Shown piece by piece: positions 57,329 to 64,000 of a stretch of 64,000 nucleotides of DNA. A program made the position numbers and the translations under genes. The notes below the pieces were generated by a model. That model made no database searches and was not told where the DNA came from. It saw only the letters and a list, made by a program, of their open reading frames with translations. Numbering within the stretch: the first letter of the stretch is position 1; every line of letters starts with the position of its first letter. This DNA is from Acidovorax sp. SRB_14 (GTDB lineage: Bacteria > Pseudomonadota > Gammaproteobacteria > Burkholderiales > Burkholderiaceae_C), in assembly GCF_012932145.1 (NCBI RefSeq), contig NZ_MWOK01000005.1, positions 34,683 to 98,682 of the forward strand, in the 5' to 3' direction.

Positions 57329-58561
57329 TCAGGTGGGGTGGGCCGTCCGGCCGATCTCGGGCCAGCGGTGATGCAGGTAGATCCAGGCGGCCAGGCCAAT
57401 CCACATCAATGCCATCGAGGCAAAGGCCAGCAGCACCGTCGAATGCATGACCAGGGGCACGAGCACGCCAGCGACCAGCCCGTTGGCCACCGAGCCCACA
57501 AACGCCTGTAGGGACGATGCCATGCCGCGCCTCTCGGGGTACAGGTCCAGCACCAGCAAGGTCACCACAGGCACCATCAGTGCCCAGCCGAACGAAAAAA
57601 CCGCGATGGGAAACAGCGCCCACGACACGTGCACGGGCAGCAGCAGGTTGGCCGCCAGGTTGAGGAGGGAAACCGTGAGCATGATCACAAAGCCATGGCG
57701 GATCTGGCGCTTGGGGGCGATCCGGCCGGCCAGGCGGCCACTGAGCCAGGCGCCGCTCATGATGCCCGAGATGGTCATCATGAAGAACCAGAAGAACTGC
57801 GTGGGCTGCAACCCCAGGTGCTCTCCCAGAAAGGCCGGGGCCGCCAGCACGTATAAAAACATGCCGTTGAACGGCACGCCGCTGGCCAGCGCGAGCAGCA
57901 CGAAGCGCGGGCTGGACCCCAACTGCCAGTAGCCGCGCATCAGGTGTTTCACACTCAGAGGCTGGCGATGCTCCGCATGCAATGTTTCTGGCAGAAGGCG
58001 AAAGTTGGCGATCCACAGCGCGACCCCGACCAGCGTCAGGAACCAGAAGATGCTGTGCCAACCGGCGTGCATATACAGCCAGCCCCCCACCATCGGCGCG
58101 ATGGCGGGTGCCACGCCGAAGTAAATGGTGACCTGGCTCATGACCTTTTGGGCCTGCGCGGGCGCAAACATATCGCGGATGACGGCGCGTGACACCACAA
58201 TGCCTGCGCCGGTGGACAGTCCCTGCAGCGCGCGGAACACCACCAGCTGGCCCACGGTTTGGGACAGCGCGCAACCGGCCGACGCCAGTGTGAACATGGC
58301 AATGCCCCACAGCACCACAGGCCGGCGACCAAAGCTGTCGGCCAGTGCGCCATGGAACAGGTTCATGAATGCAAAGCCGAACAGGTACGCCGAGAGCGTC
58401 TGTTGCATCTCGATCGGTGAAGCGCCCAGGGTGTGCGCCATGCCCGAGAACGCAGGCAGGTAGGTGTCGATGGAGAACGGACCGAGCATGCCCAGCACCG
58501 CCAGCAGGGCGGCCAGGGCCCAGCGGGGGGCTTTCCAGAGAAGGTGCGCGTCGGGGTTCAT
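57329..58561 (-). CDS. Bcr/CflA-family multidrug efflux MFS transporter
   Basis: This 410-residue, 12-helix MFS pump belongs to the DHA1 drug group. Markers are SIDTYLPAFSGMAHTLGASP in the first loop, GALADSFGRRPVVLWG (motif A), and RALQGLSTGAGIVVSRAVIRDMF (motif B region). Bcr/CflA proteins export drugs or small peptides. It lies about 100 bases from the HD-GYP-like gene on the same strand. Confidence 0.92.
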   Translation of the reverse strand: MNPDAHLLWKAPRWALAALLAVLGMLGPFSIDTYLPAFSGMAHTLGASPIEMQQTLSAYLFGFAFMNLFHGALADSFGRRPVVLWGIAMFTLASAGCALSQTVGQLVVFRALQGLSTGAGIVVSRAVIRDMFAPAQAQKVMSQVTIYFGVAPAIAPMVGGWLYMHAGWHSIFWFLTLVGVALWIANFRLLPETLHAEHRQPLSVKHLMRGYWQLGSSPRFVLLALASGVPFNGMFLYVLAAPAFLGEHLGLQPTQFFWFFMMTISGIMSGAWLSGRLAGRIAPKRQIRHGFVIMLTVSLLNLAANLLLPVHVSWALFPIAVFSFGWALMVPVVTLLVLDLYPERRGMASSLQAFVGSVANGLVAGVLVPLVMHSTVLLAFASMALMWIGLAAWIYLHHRWPEIGRTAHPT

Positions 58562-59125
58562 GAGAGCGGAAGGGAGGGGGCAGGAGCAGGCGGTGAAAGC
58601 GGCTCAAGATACCCGATTTCTGCGCGCCGGAAGGAATGACCGGCTTCCGGCATGCGCCAGGGGCGGCACGAAAAATTCAGGACGCAGGCGCCGGTCCCAT
58701 CCATGGGCACCGAACCTTGAAGGCAGGGTTTCAAGCGCTGCCCCGGTACAGGCAAAACGCCGGCCCCGACCTTTATTCCGTGTACGCAGCCGGCTGCGTG
58801 GTCAATGGCGTGCAGTTGCGTATTGGCACGATCAGCTTCTTGCCGAATGATCCACTTGCAAGGAGGCCGGCCATCCAGCTGGCGTTCGCATACCTGCTGG
58901 TGCAGGCGGTGTGGTACGCATTCGGTGAAAGGTTCAAGAGCCAGTTGCTGGTCATCAGGGCTATGTGGTCGGGTGCTAGGAAGCCTGACCTGCTACCGCA
59001 ACCACGAATCGGCTTTCGGCCATTTCTGACCAAAGCGCATACAGCCGGCACATGCTCCCCTTCGCTTCCACACAATGAGAGGGAGAAAATCCTTGATCGA
59101 GGCATGTCTGGTGCCCCTCCAAAGA
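58562..59125. other. Gap of 564 bases with no confident gene
   Basis: Between the exporter and leuD no recognisable gene exists. A plus-strand open frame from 58636 has its middle part (residues about 50-110: GVQLRIGTISFLPNDPLARR, then AFAYLLVQAVWYAFGERFKS) with GC-rich third positions and a hydrophobic stretch, but no known domain and poor ends. It may be a decayed fragment. No terminator of leuD is obvious. Confidence 0.4.
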
Positions 59126-59803
59126 CTAGGGTTGCGCCAGGGCTGACAGCCGCTCCCGCGTCGCCCGTGCCACGTCCTTCACCCAAGGCTGTGCCGCCCA
59201 GTGCTGTGCCGCAAAGGCGTTGATCTGGTCGGTGTACGAGAGCGACGCACCGATCACGTCCAGCCCCTGCAAGAACATGCGCTGGTGCCGGTCTGACAGC
59301 GTGAAGCTGGCCTGGTGTTGCGCACTGCGCACCACGCGGCGCTGTACATCAATCTCCAGCGCCAAGGGACCGGACAGCGGGGCTGCTTCGTGCATGAAGG
59401 CCTGTACATCGGCTTCGGGCACCATGGCCAGCAGCAGGCGGTTGTTGAGGGCGTTGGAATAAAAGATCTCGCCAAAGCTCGATGCCACGACGGCTTTGAA
59501 GCCATATTGTTGCATGCCCCACACGGCATGCTCGCGACTGGAGCCGCAGCCGTAGTTGGAGCCCGCAATCAGCACATCCACCGCCGCAAAGGCGGACTGG
59601 TTGAGCACAAAGTCCGGGCGCGGCTGTCCTGCGCCGTCAAAGCGCAGGTCGTACAGCAGGCCCGGTGCCAGGCCCGATTTGTCGATGCCGCGCAAAAATT
59701 GCTTGGGCATGATCTGGTCGGTGTCGAGGTTGGGCGTGGCCAGCACGGCGGCGTGGCCACGCAGCACGGCGTGGTCCGTGCGGGTAACGGGGGAGTCGGT
59801 CAT
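59126..59803 (-). CDS. leuD: LeuD-type isopropylmalate isomerase small subunit (paralogue)
   Basis: This is the small swivelling subunit of the aconitase-family isomerase. The 225-residue product has DTDQIMPKQFL near the N terminus, the GSNYGCGSSREHAVWG core, and the EIFYSNALNNRLL helix. Its ATG overlaps the leuC stop by 4 bases. No leuB or leuA lies beside it, and its operon also carries a dehalogenase-like hydrolase, so it may isomerise another 2-hydroxy acid instead of isopropylmalate. The symbol names the family. Confidence 0.88.
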   Translation of the reverse strand: MTDSPVTRTDHAVLRGHAAVLATPNLDTDQIMPKQFLRGIDKSGLAPGLLYDLRFDGAGQPRPDFVLNQSAFAAVDVLIAGSNYGCGSSREHAVWGMQQYGFKAVVASSFGEIFYSNALNNRLLLAMVPEADVQAFMHEAAPLSGPLALEIDVQRRVVRSAQHQASFTLSDRHQRMFLQGLDVIGASLSYTDQINAFAAQHWAAQPWVKDVARATRERLSALAQP

Positions 59804-61233
59804 GCGTGAAAAGTCTCCAGGGTGCGCACATCGGTGATACAGCCGGTGACGGCCGCCGCTGCCGCCATGGCCGGGCTCATGAGGTGCGTGATCGCGCCCC
59901 GCCCCTGGCGGCCTTCGAAGTTGCGGTTGGTGGTCGATGCGCAGCGCTGGCCGGGGGGCAGCACGTCGTCGTTCATGGCCAGGCACATCGAACAACCCGG
60001 CTGGCGCCATTCAAAGCCCGCGGCCTGCAGCAGGCTGGCGATGCCCTCGGCCTCGGCCTGTGCCTTCACGGCGCCCGAGCCGGGCACGACCATGGCGCGC
60101 ACGCCTGGCGCCACATGGCGCGTGCCCACCACCTTGGCCACTTCGCGCAGGTCTTCGATGCGCGCATTGGTGCACGAGCCGATGAACACATGCTGCACCG
60201 CCACGCCCTGCAGCGCCTGCCCGGCGTTGAGCGCGGTGTAGCGCAGGGCCTGCTCGGCACTGCTGCGCTGCACGGCATCGGCCATGCTGGCGGGTTGCGG
60301 CACGGTGGCGTTGATGGCCATGGCCTGGTCGGGACTGGTGCCCCAGGTGACAAAAGGAGCCACCTCACTCGCGTCAAAGCGGTGCTCCACCTCAAACACG
60401 GCATCGGCATCACTGTGCAGGGTGGCCCACTGCGCCAGTGCACGGTCACGCAGATCGCCTGTGATGTCGGGGGTGCGGGCCAGCACGTAGTCGATGGCGG
60501 TGCGGTCCGGCGCAATCAGCGCGCCGCGCGCCCCTGCCTCCACCGCCATGTTGCACAGGGTGAAGCGCGCCTCCACCGACAGCGCGCTGATCGCGCTGCC
60601 GCAGAACTCCACTGAATAGCCGCGCGCGCCCTGGGCGCCGATGCGGCTGATGATCAGGAGGATCAAATCCTTGGCGGTCGTGCCCGTGGGCAGCACGCCG
60701 TCCACGCGGATGCGCATGTCTTGCGCCAGCCGGTACACCAGGGTCTGCGTGGCCAGCACATGTTCCACCTCGGACGTGCCAATGCCAAACCCCAGCGCGC
60801 CCAGCGCACCGTAGGTTGTGGTATGGCTGTCGCCGCAGATGATGACCATGCCCGGGCGCACCATGCCATGCTCGGGCGCGACCACGTGCTCTATGCCTTG
60901 CAGCGGGTCATTGATGTCGAACAGCGGGATGTGGTGCCGTTCGCAGTTGGACTTCAGGTTGCTTGCCTGCAGCGCAGACGGAGGGTCCTGAATGATGCGG
61001 TAGCGCATCGGGTGCGTGGGAATGATGTGGCTCACCACCGCCACGTTCTGGCCCGGAACGGGCACGCCGCGCCCGGCTTCGTGCAGGCCTGCAAAGGCCT
61101 GTGGACTGGTGTATTCGTTCATCAGGTGCAGGTCGCAGAACAGCAGCACGTTCTGCTCGTCCAGCGCCGCGACCGTGTGCGATGCCACCAATTTTTGGTA
61201 AAGGGTTTGGCGGGGTATTGGGGAATGGGTCAT
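59800..61233 (-). CDS. leuC: LeuC-type isopropylmalate isomerase large subunit (paralogue)
   Basis: This is the 477-residue [4Fe-4S] subunit of an aconitase-family dehydratase. Cluster cysteines lie in GSCTNARIEDL and GCSMCLAMN; CGDSHTTTYGALGALGFGIGTSEVEHVLATQTL is the conserved N-terminal block, here given only in part: CGDSHTTTYGALG. The N-terminal segment FCDLHLMNEYTSPQAF differs from standard LeuC (RHLVHEVTSPQAF). ATG at 61233 overlaps the hydrolase stop by 4 bases, so the four genes are tightly coupled. Substrate may be a citraconate or methylmalate type acid; this is inferred from context. Confidence 0.88.
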   Translation of the reverse strand: MTHSPIPRQTLYQKLVASHTVAALDEQNVLLFCDLHLMNEYTSPQAFAGLHEAGRGVPVPGQNVAVVSHIIPTHPMRYRIIQDPPSALQASNLKSNCERHHIPLFDINDPLQGIEHVVAPEHGMVRPGMVIICGDSHTTTYGALGALGFGIGTSEVEHVLATQTLVYRLAQDMRIRVDGVLPTGTTAKDLILLIISRIGAQGARGYSVEFCGSAISALSVEARFTLCNMAVEAGARGALIAPDRTAIDYVLARTPDITGDLRDRALAQWATLHSDADAVFEVEHRFDASEVAPFVTWGTSPDQAMAINATVPQPASMADAVQRSSAEQALRYTALNAGQALQGVAVQHVFIGSCTNARIEDLREVAKVVGTRHVAPGVRAMVVPGSGAVKAQAEAEGIASLLQAAGFEWRQPGCSMCLAMNDDVLPPGQRCASTTNRNFEGRQGRGAITHLMSPAMAAAAAVTGCITDVRTLETFHA

Positions 61234-62135
61234 GCGTTGGTTTCCAGCAAGAAGGGCAAGGCGGCTGCCAGTAGGGCGTCGGGTGCCTCTTCGGCGATGT
61301 AGTGACCGCAGGGCAAGGCATGTCCGCGCACGTCGGCCGCCACGCGTTGCCACTCGGTCAGCGGCGTGAAGCACTGCTGCACCACTCCCTGCTCGCCCCA
61401 CAGGACCAGCAGCGGCATGCCCAGCTGCCGGCCCGCATCGCGATCAGCGCGGTCGTGCAAAAGGTCAATGCCGGCAGCGGCGCGGTAGTCCTCACAGATG
61501 CCATGGGCTGTGCCCGGCAGCGCCAGGCAGCGCGTGTACTCGGCCAGCGCCCGTGGATCGAACGGGGCCAGGCCCGCGCTGCGCCGGCCCATCACGTCGT
61601 GAACATACGCAGCAGGGTCGGCCTCGATCAGGCGCTCGGGCAGCGGTGCGGGCTGGATCAGGAAGAACCAATGCCAGTAGGCGCGGGCAAACGCATTGCC
61701 GGTCTGCTCGTACATGGCCAGCGTGGGCGCAATATCCAAGAGCACCATGCGCTGCACGGCCGCAGGGTGGTCTGCCGCCAACCGGTGCGCCACGCGCGCA
61801 CCCCGGTCGTGTGCCAGCACCGCAAAGCGAGCGTGGCCTAGATGTTGCATCACAGCCCGCATATCGGCGGCCATCGTGCGCTTGCTGTAGTTGGCGTGGT
61901 CCGCATCACCTTCGGGCTTGGCCGAGTCGCCATACCCACGCAGGTCGGCCAGCACCAGCGTGAAATGCCGTGCCAGTGCAGGCGTCACCTTGTGCCAGAG
62001 GGCCGAGGTCTGCGGATGCCCATGCAGCAGCAGCAAGGGCGGGCCGTTGCCACCCACCAGCGCCTGGATGTGCTGGCCGTCCGGCGTGGGTATGCGCTGC
62101 GGGGCAAATCCAGGAAACAGAGATGAGCCGGTCAT
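61230..62135 (-). CDS. Haloacetate (fluoroacetate) dehalogenase-like alpha/beta hydrolase
   Basis: This is a 301-residue alpha/beta hydrolase. Its residues match the characterised fluoroacetate dehalogenases point by point: nucleophile D110 with R111 and R114 (HDRGARVAHR), D134 (LLDIAP), the halide-pocket pair H155-W156 (AYWHWFF), Y217 (EDYRA) and H278 (CGHYI). Only the last two are shifted by about two positions. Oxyanion motif HGHP is at 38-41. This suggests hydrolysis of a C-halogen bond in a small acid to give a hydroxy acid. It could also act on another carboxylate ester. Sits between the Bug protein gene and leuC. Confidence 0.85.
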   Translation of the reverse strand: MTGSSLFPGFAPQRIPTPDGQHIQALVGGNGPPLLLLHGHPQTSALWHKVTPALARHFTLVLADLRGYGDSAKPEGDADHANYSKRTMAADMRAVMQHLGHARFAVLAHDRGARVAHRLAADHPAAVQRMVLLDIAPTLAMYEQTGNAFARAYWHWFFLIQPAPLPERLIEADPAAYVHDVMGRRSAGLAPFDPRALAEYTRCLALPGTAHGICEDYRAAAGIDLLHDRADRDAGRQLGMPLLVLWGEQGVVQQCFTPLTEWQRVAADVRGHALPCGHYIAEEAPDALLAAALPFLLETNA

Positions 62136-62171
62136 TGCAGATAACGTGCTTCAGTCGCGAGGCGAGGCTTA

Positions 62172-63158
62172 TCACTCGGTAGTGATACCGCGCTCCTTGA
62201 TGAGCTTGGCCCACCGGGGCATTTCCTTCTCCAACCGCGCGCGGGCTTGCTCTGGGGTGGAAGGCATGGGGTCGAAGCCGTCCTTGGTCATGCGCTCTTT
62301 CAGCGCCACAGTGCCGAGCGCTTGGTTCAGTGCGGTGTTGAGCTTGTCAATGACGGGTTTGGGCGTGCCCGCTGGAGCGAACACGATGAACCAGGTTTCA
62401 AACGAATAGTTGGGCAGGCCCGCCTCGGCAATGGTGGGCACATCGGGCATCTGGGCCGAGCGCTTGGCGCCTGTCACGCCCAACGCGCGCAATTTGCCCG
62501 CCTGCACATGCGGTTGTGCCGCCGATAGCACGGGAAAACTCAGCGCCACCTGGCCCGACATGGTGTCGAACATCGCCGGGCCGCCGCCCCGGTAGGGGAT
62601 GTGCACGATGGGCACGCCGGCCACTGCCTTGAACAGCTCGGCCGACATGTGGAAGGTGCTGCCCGCCCCGGCCGAGCCGTAGGAATACTTGCCAGGCTCC
62701 GCCTTGAGCAGCGCCACCAGCTCCTTGATGTTCTTTGCCGGCAGACTGTTGTTGACCACCAGCACATGCTGCGAACTGGCCACCAGGCCGATCGGGGCCA
62801 GGTCCTTAAGGGTGTCGTACGGCATCTTGGCCGTGAGCGCGGGGTTGATGGCCAGGGAAACGGTCTGCAAACCAATCGTGTAGCCATCGGGCGCGGCCTT
62901 GGCCACCATGTCCACCCCGATGTTGCCGCCCGCGCCACCCTTGTTCTCAATGAACATCGAGCCACCCAGCGCCTTGCCCCATTCATCACTCACCAGGCGT
63001 GCGGCAATGTCGGCACTGCCACCGGGCGCATAGGGCACCACCAGCTTAATGGCCTTGGTCGGATAAGCCTGCGCCAGGGCGGCGGTGGAAAGCAGCGCAA
63101 GCGCGGCGGTGGCCGCCATGCGACGGGTCAGGGAGGGCCAAACAGGGGTGTGCTTCAT
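62172..63158 (-). CDS. Bug/TctC-family periplasmic binding protein
   Basis: This 328-residue protein has a Sec signal peptide (ALALLSTAALAQAYP) and Bug-family markers: IKLVVPYAPGGSADIAARL, IENKGGAGGNIGVDMVA, HIPYRGGGPAMFDTMSG. Bug proteins bind carboxylic acids for TctAB carriers. No tctAB is in the cluster. It is the first gene of the leuCD-hydrolase operon, 36 bases before the hydrolase, so it probably captures the pathway substrate. Confidence 0.92.
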   Translation of the reverse strand: MKHTPVWPSLTRRMAATAALALLSTAALAQAYPTKAIKLVVPYAPGGSADIAARLVSDEWGKALGGSMFIENKGGAGGNIGVDMVAKAAPDGYTIGLQTVSLAINPALTAKMPYDTLKDLAPIGLVASSQHVLVVNNSLPAKNIKELVALLKAEPGKYSYGSAGAGSTFHMSAELFKAVAGVPIVHIPYRGGGPAMFDTMSGQVALSFPVLSAAQPHVQAGKLRALGVTGAKRSAQMPDVPTIAEAGLPNYSFETWFIVFAPAGTPKPVIDKLNTALNQALGTVALKERMTKDGFDPMPSTPEQARARLEKEMPRWAKLIKERGITTE

Positions 63159-63277
63159 GGGAATTGTCTCCTGGTGAGGGTGCTGCGTTATTTGAAGTCA
63201 TCTTATGGGTGATTGAAAAACGCATAAAGTCATTCAAAATCACTTCATTCATAAATCAAACGCACGAATTGCCCGGC
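63159..63277. promoter_or_regulatory. Divergent promoter region of the Bug operon and LysR gene
   Basis: The 119-base gap contains an imperfect dyad GTGATTGAA (63209-63217) and TTCAAAATCAC (63233-63243), with AT-rich flanks. LysR proteins bind such interrupted palindromes, so this is the likely operator for autoregulation and for activating the divergent operon. Confidence 0.55.
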
Positions 63278-64000
63278 ATGGACGGATTTTCAGACCTGCG
63301 CTTTTTTGCCCTGCTGATGAAAGAAGGCAGCCTGGCCGCTGCCGCTCAGCAGATGGGTATCACGCCTCCGGCCGTCAGTCGGCGCCTGGCGCAACTGGAG
63401 CATCGCCTGGGCGTGCGCCTGCTGCACCGAACCACCCGCCGCATCGGTTTGACACCCGAGGGCGAAACCTATTTGCTGGACGGCGCCCGCATCCTGAGCG
63501 ACCTGGAGGCGCTGGAGCGCACCGTGGCGGGCGCACGCAGTTCCCCGCGCGGACTCATCAAGCTGGCCGCCACGCTGGGCTTTGGTCGCGTGCACATTGC
63601 ACCGGCCCTGTCGGCCTTTGCGCGGGCTTACCCCGAGGTGGAAGTTCAACTGCACCTCACCGACCGGCCGGTGAATCTGGTGGAGCAAGGCTTCGATGCG
63701 GCCGTGCGTTTTGGGGATTTGCCCGACTCGCGCCTCACCGCGCGCCGGCTTCTGGCCAACCAGCGCGTCCTGTGCGCGGCACCCGCCTACCTGGCAGGAG
63801 CGGGCGAGCCAGCCCAGCCGGCGGACCTGCTGGCCCACCAGTGCATCGTGATCCGCGAGAGTGATGAAACCTATGGCACCTGGCACCTGCGCCAGGGGGA
63901 GCGGCAAGAGACGGTGAAGGTGCGCGGGATGCTCAGCACCAACGATGGCAGCGCCGCCACCCACTGGGCCCTGCAAGGCCACGGTGTGCTCATGCGCTCC
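63278..64000 (+). CDS. LysR-family regulator (cut by window end)
   Basis: This is a 241-residue N-terminal part of a LysR-type regulator. The winged helix-turn-helix lies in FFALLMKEGSLAAAAQQMGI then TPPAVSRRLAQLEHRLGVRL, and the ligand-binding domain begins near residue 90. It is divergent from the Bug-hydrolase-leuCD operon and probably controls it in response to the pathway acid. The reading frame runs off the window. Confidence 0.93.
   Translation, partial: MDGFSDLRFFALLMKEGSLAAAAQQMGITPPAVSRRLAQLEHRLGVRLLHRTTRRIGLTPEGETYLLDGARILSDLEALERTVAGARSSPRGLIKLAATLGFGRVHIAPALSAFARAYPEVEVQLHLTDRPVNLVEQGFDAAVRFGDLPDSRLTARRLLANQRVLCAAPAYLAGAGEPAQPADLLAHQCIVIRESDETYGTWHLRQGERQETVKVRGMLSTNDGSAATHWALQGHGVLMRS

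What the first reader, a model, noticed from the sequence alone, without database searches (positions are those of the whole stretch)
59126..64000. LeuCD paralogue, fluoroacetate-dehalogenase-like hydrolase and Bug protein in one LysR-controlled operon
Four genes overlap or nearly touch and face a LysR gene. The hydrolase keeps D110, R111, R114, D134, H155, W156 and the matching Tyr and His of fluoroacetate dehalogenases. An aconitase-family isomerase next to it could process a hydroxy acid product, or relate to the known toxicity of fluorocitrate for aconitase. I know of no described pathway with this set.
Basis: partly seen in the sequence, partly recalled or inferred. Interest (0 to 1): 0.75.

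Follow-up and report, generated by a model that had tools for sequence, protein, structure and literature searches.

The report
Defluorinase-like enzyme in hydroxy-diacid operon
A conserved bacterial operon joins a close relative of fluoroacetate-breaking enzymes to a second, altered copy of a leucine-pathway isomerase, and the hydrolase probably serves a small two-acid compound rather than fluoroacetate, which would give these widespread "defluorinases" a natural job.

Summary
In detail: Bug, hydrolase, LeuC2 and LeuD2 form a tight operon divergent from a LysR gene; the genome has a separate leuC-leuD-leuB set. The hydrolase is a true fluoroacetate-dehalogenase (FAcD) homologue, about 76% identical to Delftia FAcD 9C9F, with all catalytic and halide-site residues. 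But pocket residue 185 is Arg (Trp in three characterised FAcDs) and residue 40 is His. Hydrolase and LeuC2D2 are adjacent in 22 of 25 LeuC2 loci of a 250-genome family sample. Hydrolase relatives lie beside a tartrate-dehydrogenase-family gene in 34 of those genomes. Some other LeuC2D2 loci carry a dicarboxylate symporter or a 2-hydroxycarboxylate transporter. All 49 LeuC2-linked hydrolases have R185; none of 18 W185 relatives is linked to either partner, though this is one clade-level contrast. Best reading: an uptake and catabolism operon for a small dicarboxylate, in which the hydrolase makes a 2-hydroxy-diacid that LeuC2D2 uses. The substrate is unproven, and fluoroacetate activity in vitro remains likely. 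A fluorocitrate role has no support. New variant of a known kind.

The parts
59126..59803 (-). leuD2: small subunit of a LeuCD-type hydro-lyase, 225 aa. The canonical loop Trp of LeuD is Leu53 here (codon 59645-59647).
   Evidence: Leu in 27 of 27 LeuD2 rows against Trp in 7 of 7 canonical LeuD rows.
59800..61233 (-). leuC2: large subunit with intact Fe-S and catalytic motifs (GSCTN, GCSMC, DSHT), 477 aa, with group-specific substitutions such as R35L, H39N, V41Y, H141Y.
   Evidence: 53% identical to the genome's canonical LeuC.
61230..62135 (-). FAcD-type alpha/beta hydrolase, 301 aa; nucleophile D110 (codon 61806-61808), H40 (62016-62018), R185 (61581-61583).
   Evidence: Closest PDB entry 9C9F, 76-78% identity by chain.
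62172..63158 (-). Bug/TctC periplasmic solute-binding protein, 328 aa, first gene of the operon; no TctAB permease in the operon.
   Evidence: An orthologue at 70% identity or more is at the locus in 17 of 25 LeuC2 loci.
63159..63277 (.). Divergent promoter region between LysR and Bug (119 bp), partly conserved in related loci.
63278..64000 (+). LysR-type regulator (241 of 306 aa inside the window), best curated model TtdR, but below its cut-off.

Best explanation
This is a conserved LysR-linked operon whose fluoroacetate-dehalogenase-type hydrolase is predicted to displace a leaving group (a halide, or the oxygen of an epoxide) from a C4-type dicarboxylate and likely hands the resulting 2-hydroxy-dicarboxylate to LeuC2D2, which would dehydrate or isomerise it for central metabolism. 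Shown: gene order, conservation of the linkage, intact catalytic residues in both enzymes, and R185/H40 in place of W185/F40. Inferred: Asp110 attacks the alpha-carbon, R111 and R114 hold the alpha-carboxylate, H155/W156/Y217 take the leaving group, and R185, perhaps with H40, holds a second carboxylate. Inferred: Bug captures the diacid outside the cytoplasm, LysR senses it or its product, and in sister loci a tartrate/D-malate dehydrogenase does the job that LeuC2D2 does here. The exact substrate is not known. My best guesses, weakly held, are epoxysuccinate giving a tartrate (LeuC2D2 would then yield oxaloacetate) or a halosuccinate giving D-malate.
For: (1) Linkage: LysR, hydrolase, LeuC2 and LeuD2 conserved across genera, also at 62-64% identity in other families (L116, L118, L120, L121, unnamed; L282 Paraburkholderia; L286 Caballeronia). 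In the 250-genome family sample 24 of 25 LeuC2 genomes carry a hydrolase of at least 70% identity, against 18 of the other 225 (Fisher p 4.5e-21, genomes treated as independent). (2) Relatives of the hydrolase lie within 300 bp of a TTC-family tartrate dehydrogenase gene in 34 genomes, where about 0.1 is expected by a simple chance estimate (TTC rows, over the curated cut-off). (3) Other LeuC2D2 loci carry an SDF dicarboxylate symporter (L116, L282, L286) or a 2HCT 2-hydroxycarboxylate transporter (L283, and L061 at 63%): 5 of the 63 LeuC2 loci examined. (4) R185 and H40 in 49 of 49 LeuC2-linked hydrolases; R185 in 40 of 46 TTC-linked. W185 is a pocket residue of RPA1163 (PMC11465415, passages). 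PMC12955510 (passages) says the equivalent Trp180 appears critical for defluorination and notes that Arg occurs there in its alignment but was not recovered. (5) LeuC2/LeuD2 carry group-specific changes in conserved motifs, including LeuD W53L.
Against: About half of the hydrolases of at least 70% identity have neither partner adjacent (19 of 44 places; 48 of 80 named loci), so the hydrolase does not need LeuC2D2 nearby. 6 of 46 TTC-linked hydrolases have Gly, not Arg, at 185, and 75 of 99 unlinked ones have Arg. W185 against linkage is one clade-level contrast: only 1 independent pair, which does not differ in linkage. LeuC2D2 occurs without an adjacent hydrolase in L046, L060 (the same record as L284), L283, L285 and L300, and L061 has only a 54% relative, with Gln at 185, 3 kb from LeuC2. 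The transporter evidence covers 5 of 63 loci. A 76%-identical Delftia enzyme with R185 is deposited as a fluoroacetate dehalogenase. If that is DeHa4, its fluoroacetate activity is real (Km about tenfold below 59.8 mM; PMC12184663, passages). No assay or bound ligand supports a dicarboxylate.
Confidence: 0.5

Rival explanations
1. The hydrolase is an ordinary fluoroacetate/haloacetate dehalogenase used for detoxification or growth on haloacetates; LeuC2D2 is a passenger or an accessory.
For: All catalytic and halide-site residues are intact. 9C9F, a fluoroacetate dehalogenase from Delftia acidovorans D4B, is 76-78% identical and also has R185/H40. The D4B enzymes DeHa2 and DeHa4 are reported to defluorinate short-chain compounds (PMC13419579, passage).
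Against: Recurrent adjacent partners are LeuC2D2, Bug and tartrate dehydrogenase; no glycolate-using gene was seen to recur, though I made no dedicated search for one. No fluoride riboswitch at 7 loci; the own CrcB gene is on another contig. W185 is replaced.
Confidence: 0.22
2. LeuC2D2 is a maleate (or citraconate) hydratase, and the hydrolase is a second, parallel source of the same D-malate-type product, which a tartrate/D-malate dehydrogenase elsewhere in the genome oxidises.
For: LeuCD relatives that hydrate maleate to D-malate are known (recalled). A TTC gene over its cut-off exists in the own genome, and 24 of the 25 LeuC2 genomes have a TTC match at E 1e-120 or better (read off the printed table; G223 is not among its positives).
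Against: LeuC2 genomes nearly always hold the hydrolase, whereas the reverse does not hold, which fits a consumer better than a parallel source. TTC is common anyway (200 of 250 genomes over cut-off).
Confidence: 0.18
3. LeuC2D2 is a spare leucine (or citramalate-isoleucine) isomerase that happens to share a promoter with an unrelated esterase-like hydrolase.
For: LeuC2 passes the curated leuC cut-off and LeuD2 the leuD cut-off.
Against: The genome has a complete leuC-leuD-leuB set. The duplicate has group-specific changes at conserved motif positions and a dedicated, conserved LysR context, with a transporter gene in many loci.
Confidence: 0.1

Closest known systems
Fluoroacetate dehalogenase of Delftia acidovorans D4B (PDB 9C9F)
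   Same: 76-78% identity; same catalytic residues, R185 and H40; the near-identical gene of D. tsuruhatensis NBRC 16741 (L171, same sequence region as L098) has a divergent LysR 75% identical to this one.
   Different: The Delftia loci L098, L170 and L171 have no LeuC2D2 in the stretch held; what I saw of its literature treats it as a defluorinase only.
Fluoroacetate dehalogenase RPA1163 (PDB 3R3U series)
   Same: Fold and catalytic and halide-site residues; about 46% identity.
   Different: W185 and F40 where this protein has R185 and H40; no LeuCD partner known to me (context not examined).
3-isopropylmalate dehydratase LeuCD
   Same: Aconitase-superfamily heterodimer; intact Fe-S cysteine motifs.
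   Different: 53% (LeuC) and 42% (LeuD) identity to the genome's own leucine enzymes; LeuD loop Trp replaced by Leu; separate operon and regulator.
Tartrate/D-malate dehydrogenase (TTC family, TIGR02089)
   Same: Alternative operon partner of the same hydrolase family in 34 genomes of the sample.
   Different: Not in this operon; one copy elsewhere in the genome at G000:C10:76156-77217.
trans-Epoxysuccinate hydrolase (EC 3.3.2.4, recalled)
   Same: Would give a tartrate from a diacid by opening an epoxide.
   Different: No sequence tie tested; to my recollection no gene is assigned to that activity.

Membership tests
Fluoroacetate dehalogenase (FAcD) | Asp-His-Asp triad and two Arg for the carboxylate (D110, H280, D134, R111, R114) | tested here: met
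Fluoroacetate dehalogenase (FAcD) | Halide site His155, Trp156, Tyr219 | tested here: met
   H155, W156, Y217 in the window protein.
Fluoroacetate dehalogenase (FAcD) | Trp185 and aromatic residue 40 lining the pocket, as in RPA1163, Daro3835 and Alr0039 | tested here: not met
   R185 and H40. Position 185 is counted without gaps from P174. Not strictly a defining feature, since 9C9F also has R185 and H40.
Fluoroacetate dehalogenase (FAcD) | Defluorination of fluoroacetate in vitro | not testable with these tools
   Only inferred from relatives.
3-Isopropylmalate dehydratase (LeuCD) | Family score over curated cut-offs; Fe-S and catalytic motifs | tested here: met
3-Isopropylmalate dehydratase (LeuCD) | Canonical motif residues of LeuD (W53) and LeuC (R35, H39, V41, H141) | tested here: not met
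   27 clade rows against 7 canonical rows. That these residues set specificity is inferred.
3-Isopropylmalate dehydratase (LeuCD) | Role in leucine synthesis | tested here: inconclusive
   A second complete leuC-leuD-leuB set exists, so this copy is probably not required; activity untested.
Aconitase / fluorocitrate target | Single-chain aconitase | tested here: not met
   Two-subunit LeuCD; AcnA/AcnB/AcnD models score far below their cut-offs.
Tripartite tricarboxylate (TctABC) transporter | TctC with TctA and TctB permeases | tested here: not met
   TctC/Bug alone in the operon.
Epoxide hydrolase | Asp nucleophile and acid residues opening an epoxide | not testable with these tools
   Epoxide hydrolases are among the next-best PDB relatives; activity unknown.

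The most novel reading that the evidence does not exclude
The R185/H40 branch of the 'fluoroacetate dehalogenases', common in Burkholderiales, is a new enzyme type that opens epoxysuccinate-like (or halosuccinate-like) diacids. It would supply the missing gene for trans-epoxysuccinate hydrolase: the tartrate formed goes to tartrate dehydrogenase in some operons and to LeuC2D2, acting as a new aconitase-fold tartrate hydro-lyase, in this one. Fluoroacetate cleavage would be a side activity.
Probability: 0.15. Interest if true: 0.85.

Novelty: new variant of a known kind. Interest (0 to 1): 0.6.

Why it matters
Defluorinases are studied as tools against fluorinated pollutants, yet what they do in soil and water bacteria is unclear. 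A conserved operon tie to hydroxy-diacid enzymes, with a marker residue (R185) already noticed in an alignment but unexplained in the passages I saw, gives a concrete natural-substrate hypothesis that a few assays could settle. It would also assign a function to a LeuCD paralogue that is now annotated as a leucine enzyme.

Tried and rejected
Fluoride theme: Rfam search of 7 cluster loci found no fluoride riboswitch (one tRNA only); in the own genome the CrcB gene is on another contig. Rejected as the main role, not disproved.

Sole leucine copy: rejected.

Other recurrent same-strand neighbours of the hydrolase: in 143 loci only LeuC2/LeuD2, Bug and TTC recur widely; a set of 21 upstream ORFs looks to me like the antisense shadow of LysR, and the other sets have at most 4 members. 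My simple gene caller missed or merged some genes, so adjacency was counted from tblastn or search hits instead. One search labelled L109, L113 and L114 "neither" although one search shows a TTC-cluster gene downstream; the TTC counts are therefore conservative.

Phylogenetic control for W185 against linkage: only 1 independent pair, uninformative.

AlphaFold model of the hydrolase: mean pLDDT 71.8 and weak in the cap, used only to identify 9C9F.

Literature: "fluoroacetate dehalogenase" with "isopropylmalate" and with "tartrate dehydrogenase" gave 0 papers in the held open library; searches for epoxysuccinate/tartrate, maleate hydratase and a broader LeuCD-paralogue set gave no listing that looked on point. 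The D4B enzyme paper (PMC11223199) is not held, so that 9C9F is DeHa4 is my inference. Of the D4B genome note PMC8567785 I saw the whole text; of the other papers cited, passages only.
Full report
What is there. Minus-strand genes Bug (62172-63158), hydrolase (61230-62135), LeuC2 (59800-61233) and LeuD2 (59126-59803) form one tight operon (36-bp gap, then two 4-bp overlaps), divergent from a LysR gene that begins at 63278. Pfam and NCBIfam confirm the families; LeuC2 and LeuD2 pass the curated leuC and leuD cut-offs, while the hydrolase passes no curated NCBIfam cut-off. LysR is 306 aa in the genome; its best model is TtdR at 197 bits, far below the 398-bit cut-off, so this is only a weak hint.

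Not the leucine genes. The genome holds a second LeuC (53% identical) at G000:C38:190377-191786 with LeuD beside it and a leuB-like gene at 188409-189485. The window pair is a paralogue. Against 7 canonical rows, 27 clade rows show group-specific changes (at least 90% of clade rows) in conserved motifs: LeuC IDRHLVHEV becomes CDLHLMNEY in at least 23 of 27, DSHTSTHG becomes DSHTTTYG in 25 of 27, and the LeuD loop Trp (also Trp in the PDB chain 2hcu, alignment) becomes Leu in 27 of 27. Fe-S motifs GSCTN and GCSMC are intact. Rows L040 (counted as canonical), L056, L064, L065 and L111 were dropped from the clade set before this count.

The hydrolase. Its best PDB relative is 9C9F (515 bits), titled a fluoroacetate dehalogenase from Delftia acidovorans D4B, 76-78% identical by chain. 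All catalytic and halide-site residues are present. Two pocket positions differ from RPA1163, Daro3835 and Alr0039: residue 185 is Arg, not Trp, and residue 40 is His, not Phe or Tyr. W185 lies in the RPA1163 pocket (PMC11465415, passages). In Delftia strain B enzyme H1 the equivalent Trp180 is said to appear critical for defluorination, and a Trp180Arg present in the authors' alignment was not recovered in selections (PMC12955510, passages). An Arg there could bind a second carboxylate; that is inference.

Conservation of the linkage. In a 250-genome family sample, LeuC-type matches fall into a clade of at least 75% identity (24 matches, the window's own included, plus one 80% fragment in G062; 25 genomes); among the printed rows the next match is at 60% and the rest at 57% or less. 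Of these 25 loci, the hydrolase is beside LeuC2/LeuD2 in 22. L061 has a 54% relative 3 kb away; L046 and L060 have none in 19 kb. The LysR orthologue is at the locus in 23 of 25 (split in one, same-strand in L060), and a Bug orthologue of at least 70% identity in 17 of 25. In 24 of 25 genomes a hydrolase of at least 70% identity exists (G168 is the exception), against 18 of the other 225 (Fisher p 4.5e-21, treating genomes as independent). The dependence is one-sided: LeuC2D2 rarely occurs without the hydrolase, but the hydrolase often occurs without LeuC2D2. Of 80 named loci of close hydrolase relatives, 28 have LeuC2, 4 have TTC only and 48 have neither within the stretch held, some stretches being short. 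The two same-genus genomes in the sample, G141 and G225, have neither gene at these thresholds, so the locus is accessory.

A second partner. Relatives of the hydrolase sit within 300 bp of a TTC-family tartrate dehydrogenase gene in 34 genomes of the same sample, in 34 of the 127 hydrolase places I entered, where a simple estimate expects about 0.1 by chance. By identity to the window protein: 3 of 44 at 70% or more, 29 of 50 at 60-69%, 2 of 33 at 50-59%. Both lists were cut, so these are lower bounds. Two partner proteins from other families also pass the curated TTC cut-off. G044 and G130 carry both kinds of operon with different hydrolase copies, so 32 of the 34 genomes have the TTC kind alone. 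TTC itself is common (200 of 250 genomes over cut-off), and the own genome has one elsewhere.

Transporters. In L116 (unnamed), L282 (Paraburkholderia) and L286 (Caballeronia) the order is LysR, hydrolase, LeuC2, LeuD2, SDF dicarboxylate symporter. On a Burkholderia cenocepacia plasmid (L283) it is LysR, LeuC2, LeuD2, 2HCT 2-hydroxycarboxylate transporter, with no hydrolase. L061 has a 2HCT-type gene (63% identical to that of L283) between LysR and its distant hydrolase relative. L060 (same record as L284), L285 and L300 have Bug, LeuC2 and LeuD2 without an adjacent hydrolase. In all, 5 of 63 LeuC2 loci checked carry SDF or 2HCT genes (some of the 63 are the same record fetched twice). So LeuC2D2 can stand alone with a diacid or hydroxyacid transporter, and the hydrolase looks like an added entry step.

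Residue 185 and context. Among 194 distinct hydrolases from 205 loci (rows without a match, under 250 aa or duplicate were dropped), residue 185 is Arg in 49 of 49 LeuC2-linked, Arg in 40 and Gly in 6 of 46 TTC-linked, and among 99 unlinked Arg in 75, Trp in 18 and other in 6. No W185 protein is linked (0 of 18). On a FastTree tree of 182 rows (thinned from 198), W185 changes 3 times and is essentially one region; only 1 independent pair exists and it is uninformative, so the association is not phylogenetically independent. The LeuC2 and TTC labels need 14 and 10 changes on that tree (at least 5 each on well-supported branches), so the partnerships were gained or lost repeatedly.

Regulation. 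The LysR-operon spacer is similar among Acidovorax loci and partly in Pandoraea and Delftia loci that carry only LysR and the hydrolase. This fits one LysR regulon but proves no binding site.

How it likely works. Shown: the parts, their conservation, the intact catalytic residues and the changed pocket residues. Inferred: Bug binds a diacid; the hydrolase displaces an alpha leaving group (or opens an epoxide) by Asp110, with R185 and perhaps H40 holding the second carboxylate; the 2-hydroxy-diacid formed is dehydrated or isomerised by LeuC2D2. The tartrate dehydrogenase partner in sister operons suggests a tartrate-, D-malate- or 3-alkylmalate-type product (from recalled knowledge of that enzyme family). 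The substrate itself is unresolved.

Against this. A close relative with R185 and H40 is filed as a fluoroacetate dehalogenase, and the Delftia D4B enzyme DeHa4 does act on fluoroacetate with a Km about tenfold below 59.8 mM (PMC12184663, passages). That these are the same protein is my inference. So in-vitro defluorination by the window enzyme is likely; what is in doubt is whether it is its job. Many R185 hydrolases have neither partner nearby, and the hydrolase beside the 2HCT gene in L061 has Gln, not Arg, at 185. No fluoride riboswitch was found at the 7 loci tested and the own CrcB gene is elsewhere, but such absences are weak evidence.

Novelty. No paper in the held library contains both "fluoroacetate dehalogenase" and "isopropylmalate" or "tartrate dehydrogenase". 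The library is open-access only, so this bounds the claim. I class it as a new variant of a known kind: known enzyme folds, a conserved combination that I found no description of, and a variant pocket.

Noticed in passing
window 58600-59125: About 500 bp between the Bcr/CflA-type MFS gene and LeuD2 without a gene that I recognised; the ORFs there look spurious or like a remnant (no family search was run on them).
   Followed up: no
window 57329-58561 (-): Bcr/CflA family efflux MFS gene downstream of LeuD2, same strand; no relative of it was found in the other LeuC2 loci, so it is not a conserved part of the cluster.
   Followed up: partly
L064 / L199 (record of L199: Roseateles toxinivorans DSM 16998): LeuC2 matches in two pieces and LysR in two pieces while the hydrolase match is whole; the cluster looks as if it is decaying there.
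   Followed up: no
L113:8461-9594 (-): A weak 3-hydroxy-D-aspartate aldolase-like gene (115 bits, cut-off 690) directly upstream of a hydrolase gene that has a TTC-cluster gene downstream; another C4 diacid hint.
   Followed up: partly
L115, L122, L125: A ligase gene that looks like an acyl-CoA synthetase directly upstream of hydrolases with Gly185 that are TTC-linked; possibly a different substrate branch.
   Followed up: no
L111:8900-15822: One locus combines hydrolase, TTC, Bug, a zinc-type dehydrogenase, a flavoprotein and a different LeuCD pair (49% and 35% identical).
   Followed up: partly
L061:8989-14382: LeuC2D2, an opposite-strand LysR, a 2HCT-type transporter and a 54% hydrolase relative with Gln185 lie together; a possible intermediate arrangement.
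   Followed up: partly
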